Part shown: positions 364-5,465 of the stretch, one piece after another
Layout: every line of letters starts with the position of its first letter
How positions within the stretch are numbered: the stretch's first letter is position 1
Source of the DNA: JACPSX01 sp035288405 [NCBI: bacterium]
GTDB taxonomy: Bacteria > JACPSX01
Direction: 5' to 3'
DNA length: 9,269 nucleotides
NCBI GenBank assembly: GCA_035288405.1
Contig: DATEAK010000063.1
Location: forward strand, 1-9,269
Made by a program: the position numbers and the translations under genes
The notes under the pieces: generated by a model
What the model was told of the DNA's origin: nothing
The model's database searches: none
The model's input: the letters and a program-made list of their open reading frames with translations, nothing else

Positions 364-500
364 GTTACCGTCCGAACCGCCAGCAATCAGCTTTCGTCGA
401 GACAAACCATCCTTTCACCAATCAACCGTCAGCTTCGGAGTCCCGAAGTTCTTACTCACTTTCCCGGCTCCCTGGCTGAGCGATGATTGCTGACCCGCCC

Positions 501-530
501 CTTGACCCTACGTCAAGCCACCGATATCAT
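501..530 (+). promoter_or_regulatory. Promoter with palindromic operator for the thioesterase-AKR-selenoprotein cluster
   Basis: A TTGACC -35 box (502-507) and a TATCAT -10 box (525-530) are spaced by exactly 17 bp, and transcription would start near 537. The -35 box is embedded in a perfect inverted repeat, CTTGAC-N5-GTCAAG (501-517, 6-bp arms), which extends into the spacer. A dimeric regulator bound here would occlude or reposition RNA polymerase. A MerR-type or other small-dyad regulator is possible, but no regulator gene is in the window. The promoter match is seen in the sequence; the operator role is inference. Confidence 0.6.
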
Positions 531-591
531 TCCCACAGCACCAAAGTGGTCCCGAAATACCGTAATTCCCATCATACGAAGCGAGGGCCTC

Positions 592-1014
592 ATGATCGAA
601 CAAATCGAACACATGCGAGTCCGCTGGATCGACACCGATGCGGCCGGCCACATCCACTACGCGGCTGTCTGGAACTATTTCGAAACTGCCGAGCACGAGC
701 TCTTGAGAACCTTGGGGGTCCCGTATTCCAGAATGCACCAAAAGCTGGGCTTCCCCAGAGTGGAAGTCTGGGCCCGCTTTAAAAAGCCGCTTTACTACGA
801 CGACGAGATTGACGTCCACTGCCGGATCGAGAAGGTCGGTCGCTCTACCGTCATGTTCCACTATCAGATCTTCAAAGAAAGTCTGCTCAGCGTGGAAGGG
901 GGACTTACCATCGTGACGGTCAACGGCCGCGGAAAGCCGATTTCCCACCCGCCTCACTTCCGCAAGTCCCTGAGCAGGGCGCTGCTTAAGACAACCAAGA
1001 GAGGGAAGAAATGA
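592..1014 (+). CDS. Hotdog-fold acyl-CoA thioesterase (4HBT/YbgC-like)
   Basis: Predicted cytosolic thioesterase that hydrolyses an acyl-CoA or aryl-CoA to the free acid and CoA. The 140-aa product has the usual length for a single hotdog domain. The signature RWIDTDAAGHIHYAAVWNYF (residues 11-30) matches the 4-hydroxybenzoyl-CoA thioesterase/YbgC family; Asp16 aligns with the catalytic Asp17 of the Pseudomonas 4HBA-CoA enzyme. A later beta strand, YYDDEIDVHCRIEKVGRSTV, fits the rest of the fold. The reading frame is open back to 487, but the ATG at 592 is chosen because GAGGG lies 5 to 6 nt upstream and the DTD motif then sits at the usual distance from the N terminus. Its TGA overlaps the ATG of the aldo/keto reductase (ATGA), so the two are probably translationally coupled. 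Substrate specificity cannot be read from the sequence. Confidence 0.9.
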   Translation: MIEQIEHMRVRWIDTDAAGHIHYAAVWNYFETAEHELLRTLGVPYSRMHQKLGFPRVEVWARFKKPLYYDDEIDVHCRIEKVGRSTVMFHYQIFKESLLSVEGGLTIVTVNGRGKPISHPPHFRKSLSRALLKTTKRGKK

Positions 1015-2126
1015 GCCGGACAAACAGCGCCACGGAAACCGGCACCCGGCGCTATCAAGACCGGATTCCGGGTCTACCCGCGGATCACTTCCGCCGTCTT
1101 CCGGAGCCACCGGGGGCTTGGGTTTCCTCCATAGGTCTGGGCACGTACCTAGGCAATCACGACGATGCCACGGATGAATTGTACCGGGAAGCCATCAGCC
1201 GGGCTCTTCAGGTCGGATGCAATGTGATCGATACGGCAATCAACTACCGCTGCCAGCGCAGCGAACGCATTATCGGCGAAGTGCTCGAGCGCAGCTTCCA
1301 GGCGGGGACCTTGCACCGGAACGAGGTCGTTGTTTCCACGAAAGGGGGATTTATTCCCTTCGATAGCGAGCCTCCCGCCAATCCCGCGGGCTACTTCCGG
1401 GACACCTTCGCGCACACCGGGGTGATTCAGCCCGGTGAGGTGGTGGCAGGCTGCCACTGCCTTGCTCCCCAATATCTCTCCCACCAGTTGGAGTGCAGCC
1501 GCCGCAACCTCCGTCTCGATTGCATCGACATCTACTACATTCACAACCCTGAAACGCAATTAGCGGAGATCCCACAGTCGGAATTTCACGACAGGATGCT
1601 TAGGGCTTTTGAGTGCATGGAGGAGGCAGTCTCCGCAGGGCGCATCCGTCTGTACGGCACCGCCACCTGGAACGGCTATCGTACTCCTCCTGAAGGGGCT
1701 GAACACCTCGATCTGGCCGAGCTTTTAGGACTGGCCCGTCAAGTAGCAGGCGAAAACCATCACTTTCGGATCATCCAACTCCCCTACAACCTGGCCATGA
1801 CCGAAGCCTTTGCTCTGAAGACCCAGAAGCTCAACGGGAAGCTTTTAAGCCCTCTGGAAGCCTGCGCCGAGCTCGGGATATACGCGATGGCCAGTGCCTC
1901 CGTCTTCCAGGGCAGAGCCACTCGTCATCTGCCGGAATTTCTCGCCTCGGCTTTCCCTGGACTGCGCACGGATGCTCAAAGAGCCATTCAATTTGTACGA
2001 TCGACTCCCGGATTGGGAACCGCTCTGGTGGGAATGAAACAAAGAGCCCACGTGGAAGACAACCTTGACACCGCCCGGATTGCCCCCGTCGCTCCCGCGG
2101 TGATTGAAAAGTTTTTCGGCTCGTAA
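1011..2126 (+). CDS. Aldo/keto reductase
   Basis: NAD(P)H-dependent oxidoreductase of the AKR superfamily, a (beta/alpha)8 barrel of 371 aa with no signal peptide. The full catalytic tetrad is visible: Asp74 and Tyr79 in VIDTAINY, Lys111 in VVSTKGG, and His178 in IYYIHNPE. IGLGTYLG (about 41-48) is the first strand and LGTALVGMKQ (about 336-345) the cofactor-binding end. Lys and His are about 67 residues apart, roughly twice the usual spacing, so there is an insertion of about 30 residues carrying a CHC triplet (148-150). The enzyme resembles the long AKRs related to L-galactose dehydrogenase-type proteins rather than small AKR1-type ones; this is a family impression, not a substrate call. 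The start overlaps the thioesterase stop by 4 bp, and a 40-bp gap separates it from the selenoprotein gene. Confidence 0.9.
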   Translation: MSRTNSATETGTRRYQDRIPGLPADHFRRLPEPPGAWVSSIGLGTYLGNHDDATDELYREAISRALQVGCNVIDTAINYRCQRSERIIGEVLERSFQAGTLHRNEVVVSTKGGFIPFDSEPPANPAGYFRDTFAHTGVIQPGEVVAGCHCLAPQYLSHQLECSRRNLRLDCIDIYYIHNPETQLAEIPQSEFHDRMLRAFECMEEAVSAGRIRLYGTATWNGYRTPPEGAEHLDLAELLGLARQVAGENHHFRIIQLPYNLAMTEAFALKTQKLNGKLLSPLEACAELGIYAMASASVFQGRATRHLPEFLASAFPGLRTDAQRAIQFVRSTPGLGTALVGMKQRAHVEDNLDTARIAPVAPAVIEKFFGS

Positions 2127-2166
2127 ACGATCGGAGAGCTATGAAACAAAGCAGGAAGAGGAGACC

Positions 2167-2403
2167 ATGCCTATGGAGATTACAATCACCTACTGCGGAG
2201 AGTGAAACTACAAACCAGAGGCTGCAAGTTTGCAGCAGGCCATCCGCAAGAGTACGGGTCTTGAATCGAAGCTCGTCGAGGGGCGCGCTGGTGTTTTCGA
2301 TGTTCGAGTCGACGGCAAGCTGATCTTCTCCCACTTTCAAACGGGCCGCTTTCCGAAGCCCGAAGAGATCCTGGCCAAGATCCGGGAGATCCAAAAACCT
2401 TAA
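2167..2403 (+). CDS. SelT/SelW/SelH-family selenoprotein (in-frame UGA = Sec)
   Basis: Small thioredoxin-like (Rdx) redox protein of 78 residues. Read straight through the TGA at 2203-2205, the frame gives ITYCGEUNYKPEAASLQQAI, then LVEGRAGVFDVRVDGKLIFS and GRFPKPEEILAKIREI. This matches the SelW pattern across the full usual length. The TGA falls exactly at the second redox position of the CxxC/CxxU motif (Cys10-Gly-Glu-Sec13), so it is a selenocysteine codon rather than a nonsense mutation; no frame disruption is seen elsewhere. A hairpin suited to a bacterial SECIS follows. The ATG at 2167 has AGGAAG 8 nt upstream; the in-frame ATG at 2173, with GGAG 9 nt upstream, is an alternative. The gene is probably co-transcribed with the aldo/keto reductase. 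Family members are thought to act as thiol/selenol redox proteins; the partner is unknown. SelA, SelB and tRNA-Sec must be encoded elsewhere in the genome. Confidence 0.93.
2221..2236 (+). promoter_or_regulatory. Candidate bacterial SECIS hairpin
   Basis: GCTGC (2221-2225) and GCAGC (2232-2236) form a perfect 5-bp stem closing the loop AAGUUU, which contains the GU found in bacterial SECIS apical loops. The loop G at 2228 is 22 nt after the UGA (2203-2205), within the spacing known for SelB-binding elements inside coding regions. The two A-U pairs next to the stem could also close, tightening the loop. I see no strong lower stem. Confidence 0.65.
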
Positions 2404-3008
2404 CGGCGCCGTGGGCGCGGCGCTAATCCCCGTTCCCAGAGAATCTCAGGTTCCTGTAGATGATGGGAAATCCAGCGGGACAGGACAAAGAAGAGATCTC
2501 CGAGCCGGTTCAGATAAATTTGTGGCCATGGACCCACGTTTTCCTGACGAGAGAGTTTTACAACCTCGCGCTCCGCTCTCCGGCATACGGTGCGGCACTG
2601 GTGCAGAAAGCTGCTCAACTTTCCTCCCCCCGGAAGGACAAAGGACTTCAGCGGCTTCAGGTCTTTCTGAAAGCGATCCATAAGCGCCTCCATCTCTTTG
2701 ACCTGCGCTTCGCAGATTCGGACAGAAGAAGGACGATCCGCTTCGCCCGGAGTGGCCAGCTCCGCTCCCAGATCAAAAAGCTGCTGCTGCACCTGGCGCA
2801 AAATCTCCTCCAACTCGGCGCGGACGGTAGACTGTTTCCGCAATTCTCGATTGAGCGCCCTGACGATCCCAACGCTCGCATTCAGCTCGTCAACCGTTCC
2901 GAAAGCCTCGATCCGAGGAGAATCCTTTGGAACCCGGCGGCCACCGACAAGCCCCGTTTCCCCTTTGTCTCCGGCCCGGGTATAGACGCGATCAATCCGT
3001 ATCGTCAC
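2400..3008 (-). CDS. pduO: ATP:cob(I)alamin adenosyltransferase, PduO/MMAB type
   Basis: Transfers the 5'-deoxyadenosyl group of ATP to cob(I)alamin, giving adenosylcobalamin; a cytosolic trimer in the known family. The 202-aa product shows all the family blocks: the N-terminal ATP-binding YTRAGDKGETGLVGG, IEAFGTVDELNASVG, the helical motif LPGGGKLSSFLHQCRTVCRRAERE, and the C-terminal YLNRLGDLFFVLSR. The usual TRTGD is TRAGD here. The GTG at 3008 is chosen over an in-frame GTG at 3023 because GGAGG (3021-3017) lies 8 nt upstream and the protein then begins VTIRIDRVYTR, as expected. Its TAA interlocks with that of the convergent selenoprotein gene. A 38-codon ORF upstream overlaps the start by GTGA. 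I see no cobalamin riboswitch. The family assignment is secure; the client B12 enzyme is not in the window. Confidence 0.95.
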   Translation of the reverse strand: MTIRIDRVYTRAGDKGETGLVGGRRVPKDSPRIEAFGTVDELNASVGIVRALNRELRKQSTVRAELEEILRQVQQQLFDLGAELATPGEADRPSSVRICEAQVKEMEALMDRFQKDLKPLKSFVLPGGGKLSSFLHQCRTVCRRAEREVVKLSRQENVGPWPQIYLNRLGDLFFVLSRWISHHLQEPEILWERGLAPRPRRR

Positions 3009-3121
3009 CGCACAAACCTCCACGTCTCATCACTGGTATCGATTTGCCGGCTCCGGAATCTCCACTCACCGGCTGTCAAACCGCACGAGGTCTCCACTCG
3101 CGTCTCCTGACTCATTTCCAT
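3005..3121 (-). CDS. Candidate 38-aa leader ORF upstream of the adenosyltransferase
   Basis: A short frame beginning MEMSQETRVETSCGLTAGEW and ending TWRFVR runs from the ATG at 3121 (or 3115) to a TGA at 3007-3005. That TGA overlaps the GTG start of the adenosyltransferase as GTGA, and the downstream Shine-Dalgarno lies inside it. A candidate promoter ends about 27 bp upstream of the ATG, so this ORF would be the first on the transcript. The Shine-Dalgarno is poor (GAGGG, about 12 nt from the first ATG). The peptide is polar, has one Cys and no membrane segment, and I do not recognise it. It may be a small protein, a coupling leader or a chance frame. Confidence 0.35.
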   Translation of the reverse strand: MEMSQETRVETSCGLTAGEWRFRSRQIDTSDETWRFVR

Positions 3122-3147
3122 GGCTGCCGGCAACCCTCGCAAGCACT

Positions 3148-3177
3148 ATTAAGTAAGAAGCAAAGATCCTCTGTCAA
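3148..3177 (-). promoter_or_regulatory. Candidate promoter for the adenosyltransferase unit
   Basis: A consensus TTGACA -35 box (3177-3172) is followed, after 18 bp, by CTTAAT (3153-3148), a 4-of-6 match to the -10 box. It begins 30 bp after the end of the EamA transporter gene. The adenosyltransferase can therefore be transcribed separately from the transporter. The weak -10 box lowers confidence. Confidence 0.45.
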
Positions 3178-3206
3178 CTCCAAACCGAAGAAAAAGAGTC
3201 ACCACC

Positions 3207-4067
3207 TCAGCGTGCCGTAATCGCTGCCGACCCCAAAACAACCAGCACCCCCCCCAGGAAAATCCGCCAGGTGACCCGTTCCACGTCCCGCAGAAACAGA
3301 AAGCTCAACAAAATGGCGAAGAGGGGACGGGTGCTCAATAGGGGAGAAACCACAACGACATCTCCATGGTTTAGACTGACAAACATAAAAAGAATCGCGA
3401 CGGCAGAGGAAACGCCCGAAGCCACATAATACCATCCGGCCAATCTGCTCATCGTGAGACGGCCTTCTCCCCGGCGTACAGAAGCAAAAATCCCCACGAG
3501 AACCGCAGCGGACAGAGAATTGACCGTGGCTCCAAGAAGTGGATCCGGGATTTCCCCTAGACCCCACTTGCGGATGACCGTGGAGATACCGTAGAAGGCA
3601 GTCGCCAGAATGGCATACAAGAGGTCTTGGAGACGCCACGGGCGATGTTCCCGCTTCTCTTGGCTTAAGTTCATCACCCCGAGGATGATCAGTACGGTCC
3701 CCAGAATAATCTGCAAGGTCAGGACTTCCCCCAGGAACCAGCGGGCCACGACCACGGTCAGCAAGGGCTCCGTGGCATATATGAGGGACGAGCGGGACAC
3801 CCCCACCCGGCTGATCGCAATGAAGCTAAAGACTCTCCCCAGCCCCGGCGCGCAAAACCCCGCCAGGGCAAAGATCAGGATTCCGACCAGAAGCAGGTGT
3901 TCGGAGGGAACCATCAACAGGGCAACCCCCACGAGCAGCAAGGCCCCCGCCCCCACTGAAAGGAGGACTCCGGCCAAGGGGTCCGAGCCCTTGAGAGCCT
4001 TCTTGGCAAAAATGTAGGAAGACGCGTAGCACAGGGAAGACAGGAGTGCAAACAGTTCCGCCGGCAT
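3207..4067 (-). CDS. EamA/DMT-family transporter
   Basis: Inner-membrane protein of the drug/metabolite transporter superfamily, 286 aa, with about ten hydrophobic segments arranged as two EamA repeats of about 140 residues. The first repeat begins with LFALLSSLCYASSYIFAKKAL and ends near TVLIILGVMNLSQEK; a charged linker REHRPWRLQD follows; the second begins with LLYAILATAFYGISTVIRKW and ends VLVVLGSAAITAR. Repeat ends carry the family pattern, seen as YATEPLLTVVVARWFLGEVLTLQ and LLSTRPLFAILLSFLFLRDVE. Members export or import small metabolites such as amino acids, nucleotide precursors or amines; no substrate can be inferred. The ATG at 4067 is preferred over upstream frame extensions because GGAG lies 4 nt before it and the first helix then starts at once. 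It is followed by the adenosyltransferase on the same strand, but a promoter between them suggests they are separable. Confidence 0.92.
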   Translation of the reverse strand: MPAELFALLSSLCYASSYIFAKKALKGSDPLAGVLLSVGAGALLLVGVALLMVPSEHLLLVGILIFALAGFCAPGLGRVFSFIAISRVGVSRSSLIYATEPLLTVVVARWFLGEVLTLQIILGTVLIILGVMNLSQEKREHRPWRLQDLLYAILATAFYGISTVIRKWGLGEIPDPLLGATVNSLSAAVLVGIFASVRRGEGRLTMSRLAGWYYVASGVSSAVAILFMFVSLNHGDVVVVSPLLSTRPLFAILLSFLFLRDVERVTWRIFLGGVLVVLGSAAITAR

Positions 4068-4336
4068 GAATCTCCATTGAATTAAAAGTTGATTATGGTG
4101 GCACATTTCGCCGCGCGAGTAAACGGAGGAAACTACCTGCCAATATCCCTTCTTCGCTTATGGAATTACGAATCCGGTAGCCTCGCCGTTGAGCCTGGAA
4201 GTGGGGCACGGGGGAAGGAACTCGATCCGAATCTATTCTTCGCGCAGCATGCTTTGCGGGATCCGAGAAGGTGACAGTGAGTGAAGGCTCACGGAGAACG
4301 AGAGCACGGAAACCAACCGCGGGCCGGGAAACTTTT

Positions 4337-4618
4337 TCAGGATGCCAGTCTGCAACGCCCATGCTTGGCCAGAAATCCCGGCAACATACAACTCACGAGC
4401 CGGTAGGCCTCCTGATCCCGGGAAACCACGCGAAAAGCCTCCTCACACAAAAGGGCAATTAAAACTCCAAAGGGCACGGTAATCCGAATGGTTTCCCGCT
4501 TTACGTTAGCCATCGCCTGATTCCCCCAAGCTGGTTGGATGCCCTCCCCCGAGTAGCATATCGGCGATTTCCATTCTTCCCTTGATCTCGATTCCATCCC
4601 TCGCCCCGGCAAGATCAA
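4337..4618 (-). CDS. Doubtful hypothetical protein, up to 93 aa
   Basis: This frame starts at a TTG (4618-4616) with AGGAGG 9 nt upstream. Alternative starts are an ATG at 4597, beginning MESRSREEW, and an ATG at 4513, beginning MANVKRETIRITVPFGVLIA and preceded by GGGGGA. The segment after the last ATG has a short hydrophobic stretch (ITVPFGVLIALLCEEAFRVV) and looks the most protein-like. I do not recognise it. A promoter-like pair lies about 75 bp upstream. It could be a small orphan gene or chance, and the true start is undecided. Confidence 0.3.
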   Translation of the reverse strand: MILPGRGMESRSREEWKSPICYSGEGIQPAWGNQAMANVKRETIRITVPFGVLIALLCEEAFRVVSRDQEAYRLVSCMLPGFLAKHGRCRLAS

Positions 4619-4693
4619 AAAACCATCCCTCCTTACCGGGACATACTGAACAAACCGCCCTCTTCACTGACACATAGGTCAGGAACGGAGGAG

Positions 4694-4721
4694 ACTATAT
4701 AAAGACGACGGGGGCTGTGAA
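4694..4721 (-). promoter_or_regulatory. Possible promoter for the 4337-4618 ORF
   Basis: TTCACA (4721-4716) and TATAGT (4699-4694), each a 5-of-6 match to the sigma70 boxes, are spaced by 16 bp on the minus strand. Transcription would begin near 4687, and a CTGAC-N6-GTCAG dyad (4682-4667) would fall in the leader. The pairing fits, but no secure gene follows. Confidence 0.35.
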
Positions 4722-4746
4722 TCCCTGCGATTGGGACCGGGATCCT

Positions 4747-4783
4747 CCGCGGTTTTTCCTCCCGCGCGCGAGAAACACCGCGG
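4747..4783. repeat. Strong inverted repeat of unknown role
   Basis: CCGCGGTTTTTC (4747-4758) and GAAACACCGCGG (4772-4783) pair over 12 positions with one mismatch, enclosing a 13-nt loop rich in CG. It lies 32 bp downstream of the STAS-like gene's stop. There is no U-run after it on either strand, so it is not a classic intrinsic terminator. It could stabilise the 3' end of the STAS-like mRNA or bind a protein. Confidence 0.5.
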
Positions 4784-4814
4784 CCGATCCACTCGAGAAA
4801 GGTGAAGAAGAGAC

Positions 4815-5399
4815 TCAGGCAGGGGAGCTCAGAATAGGGCGGTAAACGAACTGTCTGCCGGCGGGGCTCATGGTGCGTTCCTCACGCACAACAAGCCGAG
4901 CCTTATAAAGGTTGAGCAGCCGGGTGCCGCTCGTGTTCAGCTCGATGTGGAGTATTTCCGCCATCTGTCGAGCCGTCACCTCGCACTGCTTGACAACAAA
5001 GTCCAGGGTCTCCCGCAAATAGTTGTTCAAAACACCCAGGATCTCCCAGTCAGCCCCCTTCTGTTTTCCCAGAACGGCGAGACGTTTTCGCTCCAGAGCC
5101 ACCTCGATGTTTTCCTTATGACTTTCCGAAATATTTTGGAGGACAATGTAGCGGTCCCCATACTCCCCCCCAACCAGCCGGGCGACGAGTTTGGCCACCA
5201 CCTCGTCAGCGCACGAAAAATCAATCACCTCCACTCGGGAAAAATCCAGGTAGGCAATTGTTGCTTGCGGGGACTGAAGCAGTTTCTCCTCAATGTTCCG
5301 TCTCAGGGATTCTCCCGTATGACGGTTCACCAGGGGATGCGAGCCGTTGGGAAACTGCTCCCGGAGAAGATCGACAACATCGATTTGCAGCTCGGACAT
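4815..5399 (-). CDS. STAS-like (DUF4325-type) protein with C-terminal winged helix
   Basis: Predicted cytosolic regulatory protein of 194 aa. Residues about 25-110 look like the STAS-like domain: a Leu/Arg-rich helix, then ATIAYLDFSRVEVIDFSCAD followed by EVVAKLVARLV, and RYIVLQNISESHKENIEVAL. The VxDxS-type turn is characteristic of this fold. Residues about 135-190, beginning VTARQMAEILHIELNTSGTR and continuing LLNLYKARLVVREERTMSPA, look like a winged helix with a beta wing ending FVYRPI. The frame is open back to 5465, but that TTG is part of a TTGACA -35 box, so the ATG at 5399 (GGGG about 8 nt upstream) is the start. It has its own promoter 3' of the deformylase gene, with a perfect palindrome at the transcription start. 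I infer a DNA-binding regulator that may control itself. The domain names rest on pattern recognition, not a search. Confidence 0.75.
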   Translation of the reverse strand: MSELQIDVVDLLREQFPNGSHPLVNRHTGESLRRNIEEKLLQSPQATIAYLDFSRVEVIDFSCADEVVAKLVARLVGGEYGDRYIVLQNISESHKENIEVALERKRLAVLGKQKGADWEILGVLNNYLRETLDFVVKQCEVTARQMAEILHIELNTSGTRLLNLYKARLVVREERTMSPAGRQFVYRPILSSPA

Positions 5400-5422
5400 A
5401 AGATGACCCCATTTGTTCAATA

Positions 5423-5436
5423 CTTTCAATTGAAAG
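5423..5436. promoter_or_regulatory. Perfect 14-bp palindrome, candidate operator
   Basis: CTTTCAATTGAAAG is a perfect palindrome that starts immediately after the -10 box of the STAS-like gene and spans the expected transcription start. With small gaps the symmetry extends outward (CAATAC on one side, GTATATTG on the other). A dimer bound here would block initiation. The position suggests repression, and the downstream protein itself is the obvious candidate ligand. Confidence 0.6.
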
Positions 5437-5465
5437 AGTATATTGATCCCTACAATAAATGTCAA
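5437..5465 (-). promoter_or_regulatory. Sigma70 promoter of the STAS-like gene
   Basis: TTGACA (5465-5460) and TATACT (5442-5437) with a 17-bp spacer on the minus strand: a perfect -35 box and a 5-of-6 -10 box. Transcription would begin near 5430, about 30 nt before the ATG at 5399. The region around it is markedly AT-rich compared with its surroundings. Confidence 0.82.

What the first reader, a model, noticed from the sequence alone, without database searches (positions are those of the whole stretch)
2167..2403. Hidden selenoprotein gene read through UGA in a SelW-like frame
The plus-strand frame after the AKR gene encodes a complete SelT/SelW/SelH-family protein only if the TGA at 2203-2205 is read as an amino acid. 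It sits exactly at the second redox position of the CxxC motif (CGEU), and conservation continues on both sides. A hairpin with a GU-containing loop lies 22 nt downstream. A standard ORF caller instead reports a meaningless 60-aa frame (2141-2323). The genome must therefore decode UGA as selenocysteine.
Basis: partly seen in the sequence, partly recalled or inferred. Interest (0 to 1): 0.75.

Follow-up and report, generated by a model that had tools for sequence, protein, structure and literature searches.

The report
Bacterial SelW-like selenoprotein gene
A small bacterial redox-protein gene carries an in-frame UGA that is almost certainly read as selenocysteine; this is real, but it belongs to a selenoprotein family known since about 2005.

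Summary
With TGA 2203-2205 read as a residue, window 2167-2403 (+) encodes a complete 78-aa Rdx/SelW protein, MPMEITITYCGEUNYKP… (Pfam Rdx E=2e-18; TIGR02174 over its cut-off).

All 64 relatives aligned have TGA at that codon (three are second copies). The closest, on a Tectomicrobia MAG contig 79% identical in DNA, differs in 31 of 77 codons yet keeps the TGA, with dN/dS about 0.08. That argues against sequencing error or pseudogene.

The hairpin at 2221-2236 meets the published bacterial SECIS constraints. In relatives two wobble-base pairs covary (0 of 2000 synonymous shuffles reach the observed pairing), and the loop GU is near-invariant (64 of 65 rows).

SelB is present in the three nearest genomes. 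In a 199-genome sample, 56 of 59 genomes with a TGA-containing SelW match have SelB, against 74 of 136 without a match.

Caveats: the window's own genome is not held. In the closest MAG, SelB and a UGA-containing SelD were found, but not SelA or tRNA-Sec. The window hairpin is no stabler than shuffled sequence.

Verdict: supported; an ordinary new member of the known SelW-like family.

The parts
2167..2403 (+). SelW-like (Rdx family) selenoprotein CDS, 78 aa plus TAA stop, CxxU motif
   Evidence: translation; Pfam Rdx PF10262 66.8 bits; TIGR02174 64.5 bits over cut-off 34.2; dN/dS about 0.08 against L001
2203..2205 (+). in-frame TGA, predicted selenocysteine codon (U13)
   Evidence: TGA at the homologous codon in 65 of 65 aligned rows, window and three duplicate loci included; Cys three codons earlier in 65 of 65
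2221..2236 (+). predicted bacterial SECIS hairpin, 6 bp stem, AGUU loop
   Evidence: fold; meets the bSECIS constraints (model from PMC13188914 section 5); covariation in relatives
2154..2164 (+). purine-rich, Shine-Dalgarno-like stretch before ATG 2167 (read by eye)
   Evidence: sequence printed
1011..2126 (+). upstream aldo/keto reductase gene, same strand (neighbour)
   Evidence: PF00248 E=2e-26; same order in L001
2400..3023 (-). convergent cob(I)yrinic acid a,c-diamide (cobalamin) adenosyltransferase gene, overlapping the SelW stop by 4 nt (neighbour)
   Evidence: PF01923, TIGR00636

Best explanation
Window 2167-2403 is a gene for a SelW-like (Rdx family) selenoprotein. SelB with Sec-tRNA-Sec, recruited by the hairpin 2221-2236 just after the codon, inserts selenocysteine at UGA 2203-2205. 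That gives a thioredoxin-like redox protein with a C-x-x-U active site, which probably works in thiol/selenol redox chemistry. Shown by computation: frame, family, conserved UGA, conserved RNA hairpin in relatives, purifying selection, SelB in relatives. Inferred: decoding in this organism, the fold, and the redox role.
For: Pfam Rdx E=2e-18 across the UGA; TIGR02174 over cut-off. TGA at the same codon in 65 of 65 aligned rows, with no other stop inside the domain in any row. L001, a contig 79% identical in DNA, keeps the TGA; 22 synonymous (one of them the stop codon) against 9 non-synonymous codon differences, dN 0.059, dS 0.762. Hairpin wobble pairs 18-30 and 21-27 formed in 56 and 57 of 57 distinct rows, against synonymous-shuffle means of 36.9 and 46.3; 0 of 2000 shuffles reach the observed total; loop codon AGT or GGT in 56 of 57. 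Window hairpin meets the bSECIS constraints. SelB over cut-off in G001, G002 and G003. 56 of 59 genomes with a TGA-containing SelW match have SelB against 74 of 136 with no match, Fisher p = 2.9e-9. UGA-containing SelD in the closest genome. TGA is an ordinary stop elsewhere in the window: 4 of 10 listed genes end in TGA.
Against: Own genome not held. SelA and tRNA-Sec not found in the closest MAG G001. SelD and tRNA-Sec not found in G003. Hairpin free energy is not unusual in the window (z 0.19) or in L001 and L002 (z about -0.5); only L003 stands out (z -2.0). The window hairpin's 3' arm pairs in a register one base off the family consensus. Stem pair 19-29 forms in only 43 of 57 rows, and the three pairs without a varying wobble base do no better than the synonymous shuffle. 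23 of 62 rows fail the bSECIS constraints in their minimum-energy fold. 3 of 59 genomes with a TGA-containing SelW match show no SelB. All genomes concerned are of unstated completeness.
Confidence: 0.96

Rival explanations
1. The TGA is a sequencing or assembly error for TGC/TGT, or a nonsense mutation, and the gene is a Cys-SelW or a pseudogene.
For: Stop-free Rdx matches exist: 5 of 66 matches (whether they hold Cys at this position was not read).
Against: TGA in all 65 rows, including L001, a separate contig 79% identical in DNA; dN/dS about 0.08, and 0.09 after the UGA; conserved SECIS-like hairpin in relatives.
Confidence: 0.02
2. UGA is reassigned genome-wide (e.g. to Trp or Gly) and no selenocysteine is involved.
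For: None found.
Against: 4 of the 10 genes listed (thioesterase, EamA, the unassigned ORF 4815-5465, TPP enzyme) end in TGA; SelB in relatives; the residue falls at the redox position.
Confidence: 0.005
3. Only a truncated protein starting at TTG 2230 is made.
For: A 57-aa ORF exists.
Against: The peptide before the UGA is identical in L001 over residues 3-12; the Rdx profile starts at residue 4; the truncation would lack the CxxU site.
Confidence: 0.01

Closest known systems
Bacterial SelW-like selenoprotein (Rdx PF10262 / TIGR02174; SelW-like family of PMC1088965 and PMC1794560)
   Same: CxxU motif, 78-aa single-domain Rdx protein, in-frame UGA, hairpin with a G in its loop just after the UGA (passages of both papers)
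   Different: Nothing essential; its closest relative is a Tectomicrobia MAG, and the 3' arm of the SECIS stem is shifted by one base against the relatives aligned here
NF041051 SelTWH_Campy, SelT/SelW/SelH family (seleno)protein
   Same: Best NCBIfam E-value, 4e-23
   Different: 81.4 bits, below its curated cut-off of 88

Membership tests
Rdx / SelW-like protein family | match to the Rdx or SelTWH profile over curated cut-off | tested here: met
   66.8 bits vs 22.6; TIGR02174 64.5 vs 34.2
Rdx / SelW-like protein family | CxxC or CxxU motif near the N-terminus | tested here: met
   C10-G-E-U13
NF041051 SelTWH_Campy equivalog | score over the curated cut-off | tested here: not met
   81.4 vs 88 bits
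bacterial selenoprotein | in-frame UGA conserved in homologs at a redox position | tested here: met
   65 of 65 aligned rows
bacterial selenoprotein | bSECIS hairpin (3-9 nt loop, 4-16 bp stem, G in first two loop positions, 16-37 nt spacing, MFE <= -7.5) | tested here: met
   loop 4 nt AGUU, 6 bp, 21 nt spacing, -8.0 kcal/mol; 17 of 1000 shuffles also pass (constraints)
bacterial selenoprotein | selA, selB, selC, selD in the same genome | not testable with these tools
   own genome not held; closest MAG: SelB and SelD found, SelA and tRNA-Sec not found
bacterial selenoprotein | selenium in the protein | not testable with these tools
   needs experiment

The most novel reading that the evidence does not exclude
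In this lineage the SelW SECIS has slipped by one base on its 3' arm: an AGUU tetraloop closed by A-U, instead of the NGUYU loop closed by C-G or G-C seen in relatives. This suggests that SelB recognition is anchored on the distance from UGA to the loop GU rather than on the stem register.
Probability: 0.2. Interest if true: 0.25.

Novelty: new member of a known kind. Interest (0 to 1): 0.15.

Why it matters
It adds a selenoprotein, and by inference selenocysteine decoding, to a poorly studied, probably Tectomicrobia-like lineage, and it is a clear case of a gene that plain ORF callers miss. It changes no general understanding: SelW-like was the most abundant selenoprotein family in the 2005 Sargasso Sea survey (PMC1088965, passage).

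Tried and rejected
Tried without result: search of the window's own genome and laying it as a file (not held); tRNA scan of the window (none); Rfam on the window (no match at gathering threshold); phylum search around G001 (returned only G001 itself). RF01852 rang over its cut-off in 3 of 3 genomes, 7 hits in all, but it also rang over cut-off in 5 of 14 control genomes, and ARAGORN calls only one of the 7 a tRNA-SeC (G002); the others are tRNA-Leu, -Ser and -Trp. Only 150 of 459 to 1082 first-look candidates per genome were scored. The first anticodon-plus-T-loop pattern hit only G002; the looser one gave 3 hits in G001 against 4 for its reversed control, and 2 against 1 in G003. SelA in G001 was sought with two models and not found. 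Gene-neighbourhood conservation (thioesterase, AKR, adenosyltransferase, EamA) was seen only in L001 and its copies L029 and L093 among the 93 loci held then, many of which hold only about 1.5 kb per side. Two translations were in a wrong frame and were replaced. Three fetched rows listed with an extra stop (L030, L038, L046) were checked: the extra stop is the end of the gene. Structure prediction was not run, since the family assignment was already secure.

Full report
Observation. The plus-strand frame 2167-2403 is open from ATG to TAA except for one TGA at 2203-2205. Read through, it gives a 78-aa protein with the motif YCGEUNYKP. Pfam Rdx matches residues 4-74 at E=2e-18, and NCBIfam TIGR02174 (SelT/SelW/SelH family) scores 64.5 bits against a cut-off of 34.2; NF041051, the SelT/SelW/SelH family (seleno)protein model, has the best E-value but falls below its cut-off, 81.4 against 88. 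Eight distinct solved sequences match at E <= 0.1, the best Atu0228 (2fa8, E=1.7e-8), and the weakest a Selenoprotein W (2npb, E=0.008).

Relatives. A scan of bacterial and archaeal genome contigs found three related loci: a Candidatus Tectomicrobia MAG (L001, 87%), a Phycisphaerae MAG (L002, 49%) and a Thermoanaerobaculaceae MAG (L003, 54%). All three have TGA at the same codon. Phylum searches around the genomes of L002 and L003 found matches in 143 of 392 genomes (its list of matches is truncated) and in 63 of 199 genomes. In one search, whose list of matches is complete, 61 of 66 matches contain a TGA and 5 have no stop; the place of the TGA was read only for the 30 fetched. The 30 best loci of each search were fetched; with L001-L003, the window and the second copy L029, 65 rows align over codon 13 and all 65 read TGA (L029, L035 and L061 are second copies of L001, L002 and L003). 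All 65 have Cys three codons earlier, and none has another stop inside the domain. These loci are the best-scoring ones, so the sample leans towards this form.

The closest relative. L001 is 79% identical in DNA to the window over 493-3796 and keeps the order thioesterase, AKR, SelW, convergent adenosyltransferase, EamA transporter. Over 77 codons, counted from Met3 through the stop, 31 differ: 22 synonymous (the TAA/TAG stop among them) and 9 non-synonymous, with 26 of 35 base differences at third positions. Leaving out the UGA and the stop, dN is 0.059 and dS 0.762, and after the UGA alone 0.070 and 0.744. So the reading frame is under protein-level selection beyond the UGA, and the TGA is shared by a clearly distinct sequence. 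Whether L001 and the window come from different samples is not known.

The RNA element. The window folds a 6-bp hairpin with loop AGUU at 2221-2236. It meets the four bSECIS constraints given in PMC13188914 section 5 with its figure legend (read): loop 4 nt, stem 6 bp, G at loop position 2, 21 nt from UGA to loop, -8.0 kcal/mol. 17 of 1000 dinucleotide shuffles of the same 48 nt also pass. Across the family 39 of 62 non-duplicate rows pass, against 119 of 2480 shuffles; L002 is among the 23 that fail in the minimum-energy fold. Folding energy alone is not unusual for the window (z 0.19), L001 (-0.54) or L002 (-0.48), and is lower than shuffles for L003 (-2.03). The strong evidence is comparative. 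In the 57 distinct rows other than the window and L001, one register (column sum 48) has 99% of its five best pairs formed, against 77% for the next best register tested. Wobble-position pairs 18-30 and 21-27 form in 56 and 57 of 57 rows, through CG, GC, UA, AU, GU and UG at 18-30 and CG and GC at 21-27. Shuffling synonymous codons among rows gives means of 36.9 and 46.3 for these pairs, and 0 of 2000 shuffles reach the observed total. The other three pairs tested do not exceed that shuffle, because amino acids fix their bases (17-31, 56 of 57; 20-28, 57 of 57; 19-29, only 43 of 57). The loop codon is AGT or GGT in 56 of 57 rows, though the code would allow other third bases; over all 65 rows the loop GU is present in 64. 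The shuffle does not correct for shared ancestry. The window and L001 keep the 5' arm and the loop GU at the same distance from the UGA, but pair the 3' arm one base earlier (column sum 47), a small variant of the element.

Machinery. SelB over cut-off was found in all three nearest genomes, SelD in two of three (G001, G002), SelA in two of three (G002, G003), and a tRNA-Sec confirmed by ARAGORN only in G002 (also the pattern). In G001, the closest, one SelD is on the same 9.6-kb contig as SelB and has a UGA in CAGUAGK near its N-terminus; a second SelD there also contains a TGA, whose place was not read. SelA and tRNA-Sec were not found in G001. G001 is a MAG in many contigs, so this may be incompleteness, but that is not shown. 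In the 199-genome sample around G003, 56 of 59 genomes with a TGA-containing SelW match have SelB at E <= 1e-60, against 74 of 136 without a match (Fisher p = 2.9e-9) and 3 of 4 with only stop-free matches. The genomes are related, so the p-value overstates the number of independent cases.

Other readings. Genome-wide reassignment of UGA is very unlikely, because 4 of the 10 genes listed end in TGA (one of these four, 4815-5465, matches no family). Sequencing error or pseudogene is contradicted by L001 and by dN/dS.

What is known. SelW-like bacterial selenoproteins with CXXU were the most abundant selenoprotein family in the Sargasso Sea survey, 48 genes (PMC1088965, passages), and are tabulated across bacteria in PMC1794560 (passages), which names SelW-like among selenoproteins with very few or no Cys homologs in Sec-containing organisms. 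This window is a further member. Three literature searches (listings, apart from passages of PMC1794560, PMC1088965 and PMC13188914 and section 5 of the last) listed no paper on this particular lineage's SelW; they were not exhaustive.

Role. The thioredoxin-like fold and redox role are recalled for the family and inferred from the CxxU motif; no partner was identified. The AKR neighbour was seen only in the sister locus.

Noticed in passing
window 2221-2236: The 3' arm of the SECIS hairpin pairs one base earlier than the consensus of 57 relatives, with the loop GU at an unchanged distance from the UGA.
   Followed up: partly
window 2400-2403: The SelW gene (+) and the adenosyltransferase gene (-) overlap tail to tail by 4 nt, sharing TTAA.
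   Followed up: no
L022 and L024 (genome G001): Two SelD genes over cut-off in one MAG, each with one TGA inside; only the one on contig C175 was read through and placed.
   Followed up: partly
window 4815-5465 (-): A 216-aa ORF without a Pfam or NCBIfam match at E 0.001.
   Followed up: no
window 4107-4814: Stretch without a clear gene (no ORF in it was searched against families); parts near it and in it (3941-4133, 4308-4501) are about 79% identical to L001.
   Followed up: no
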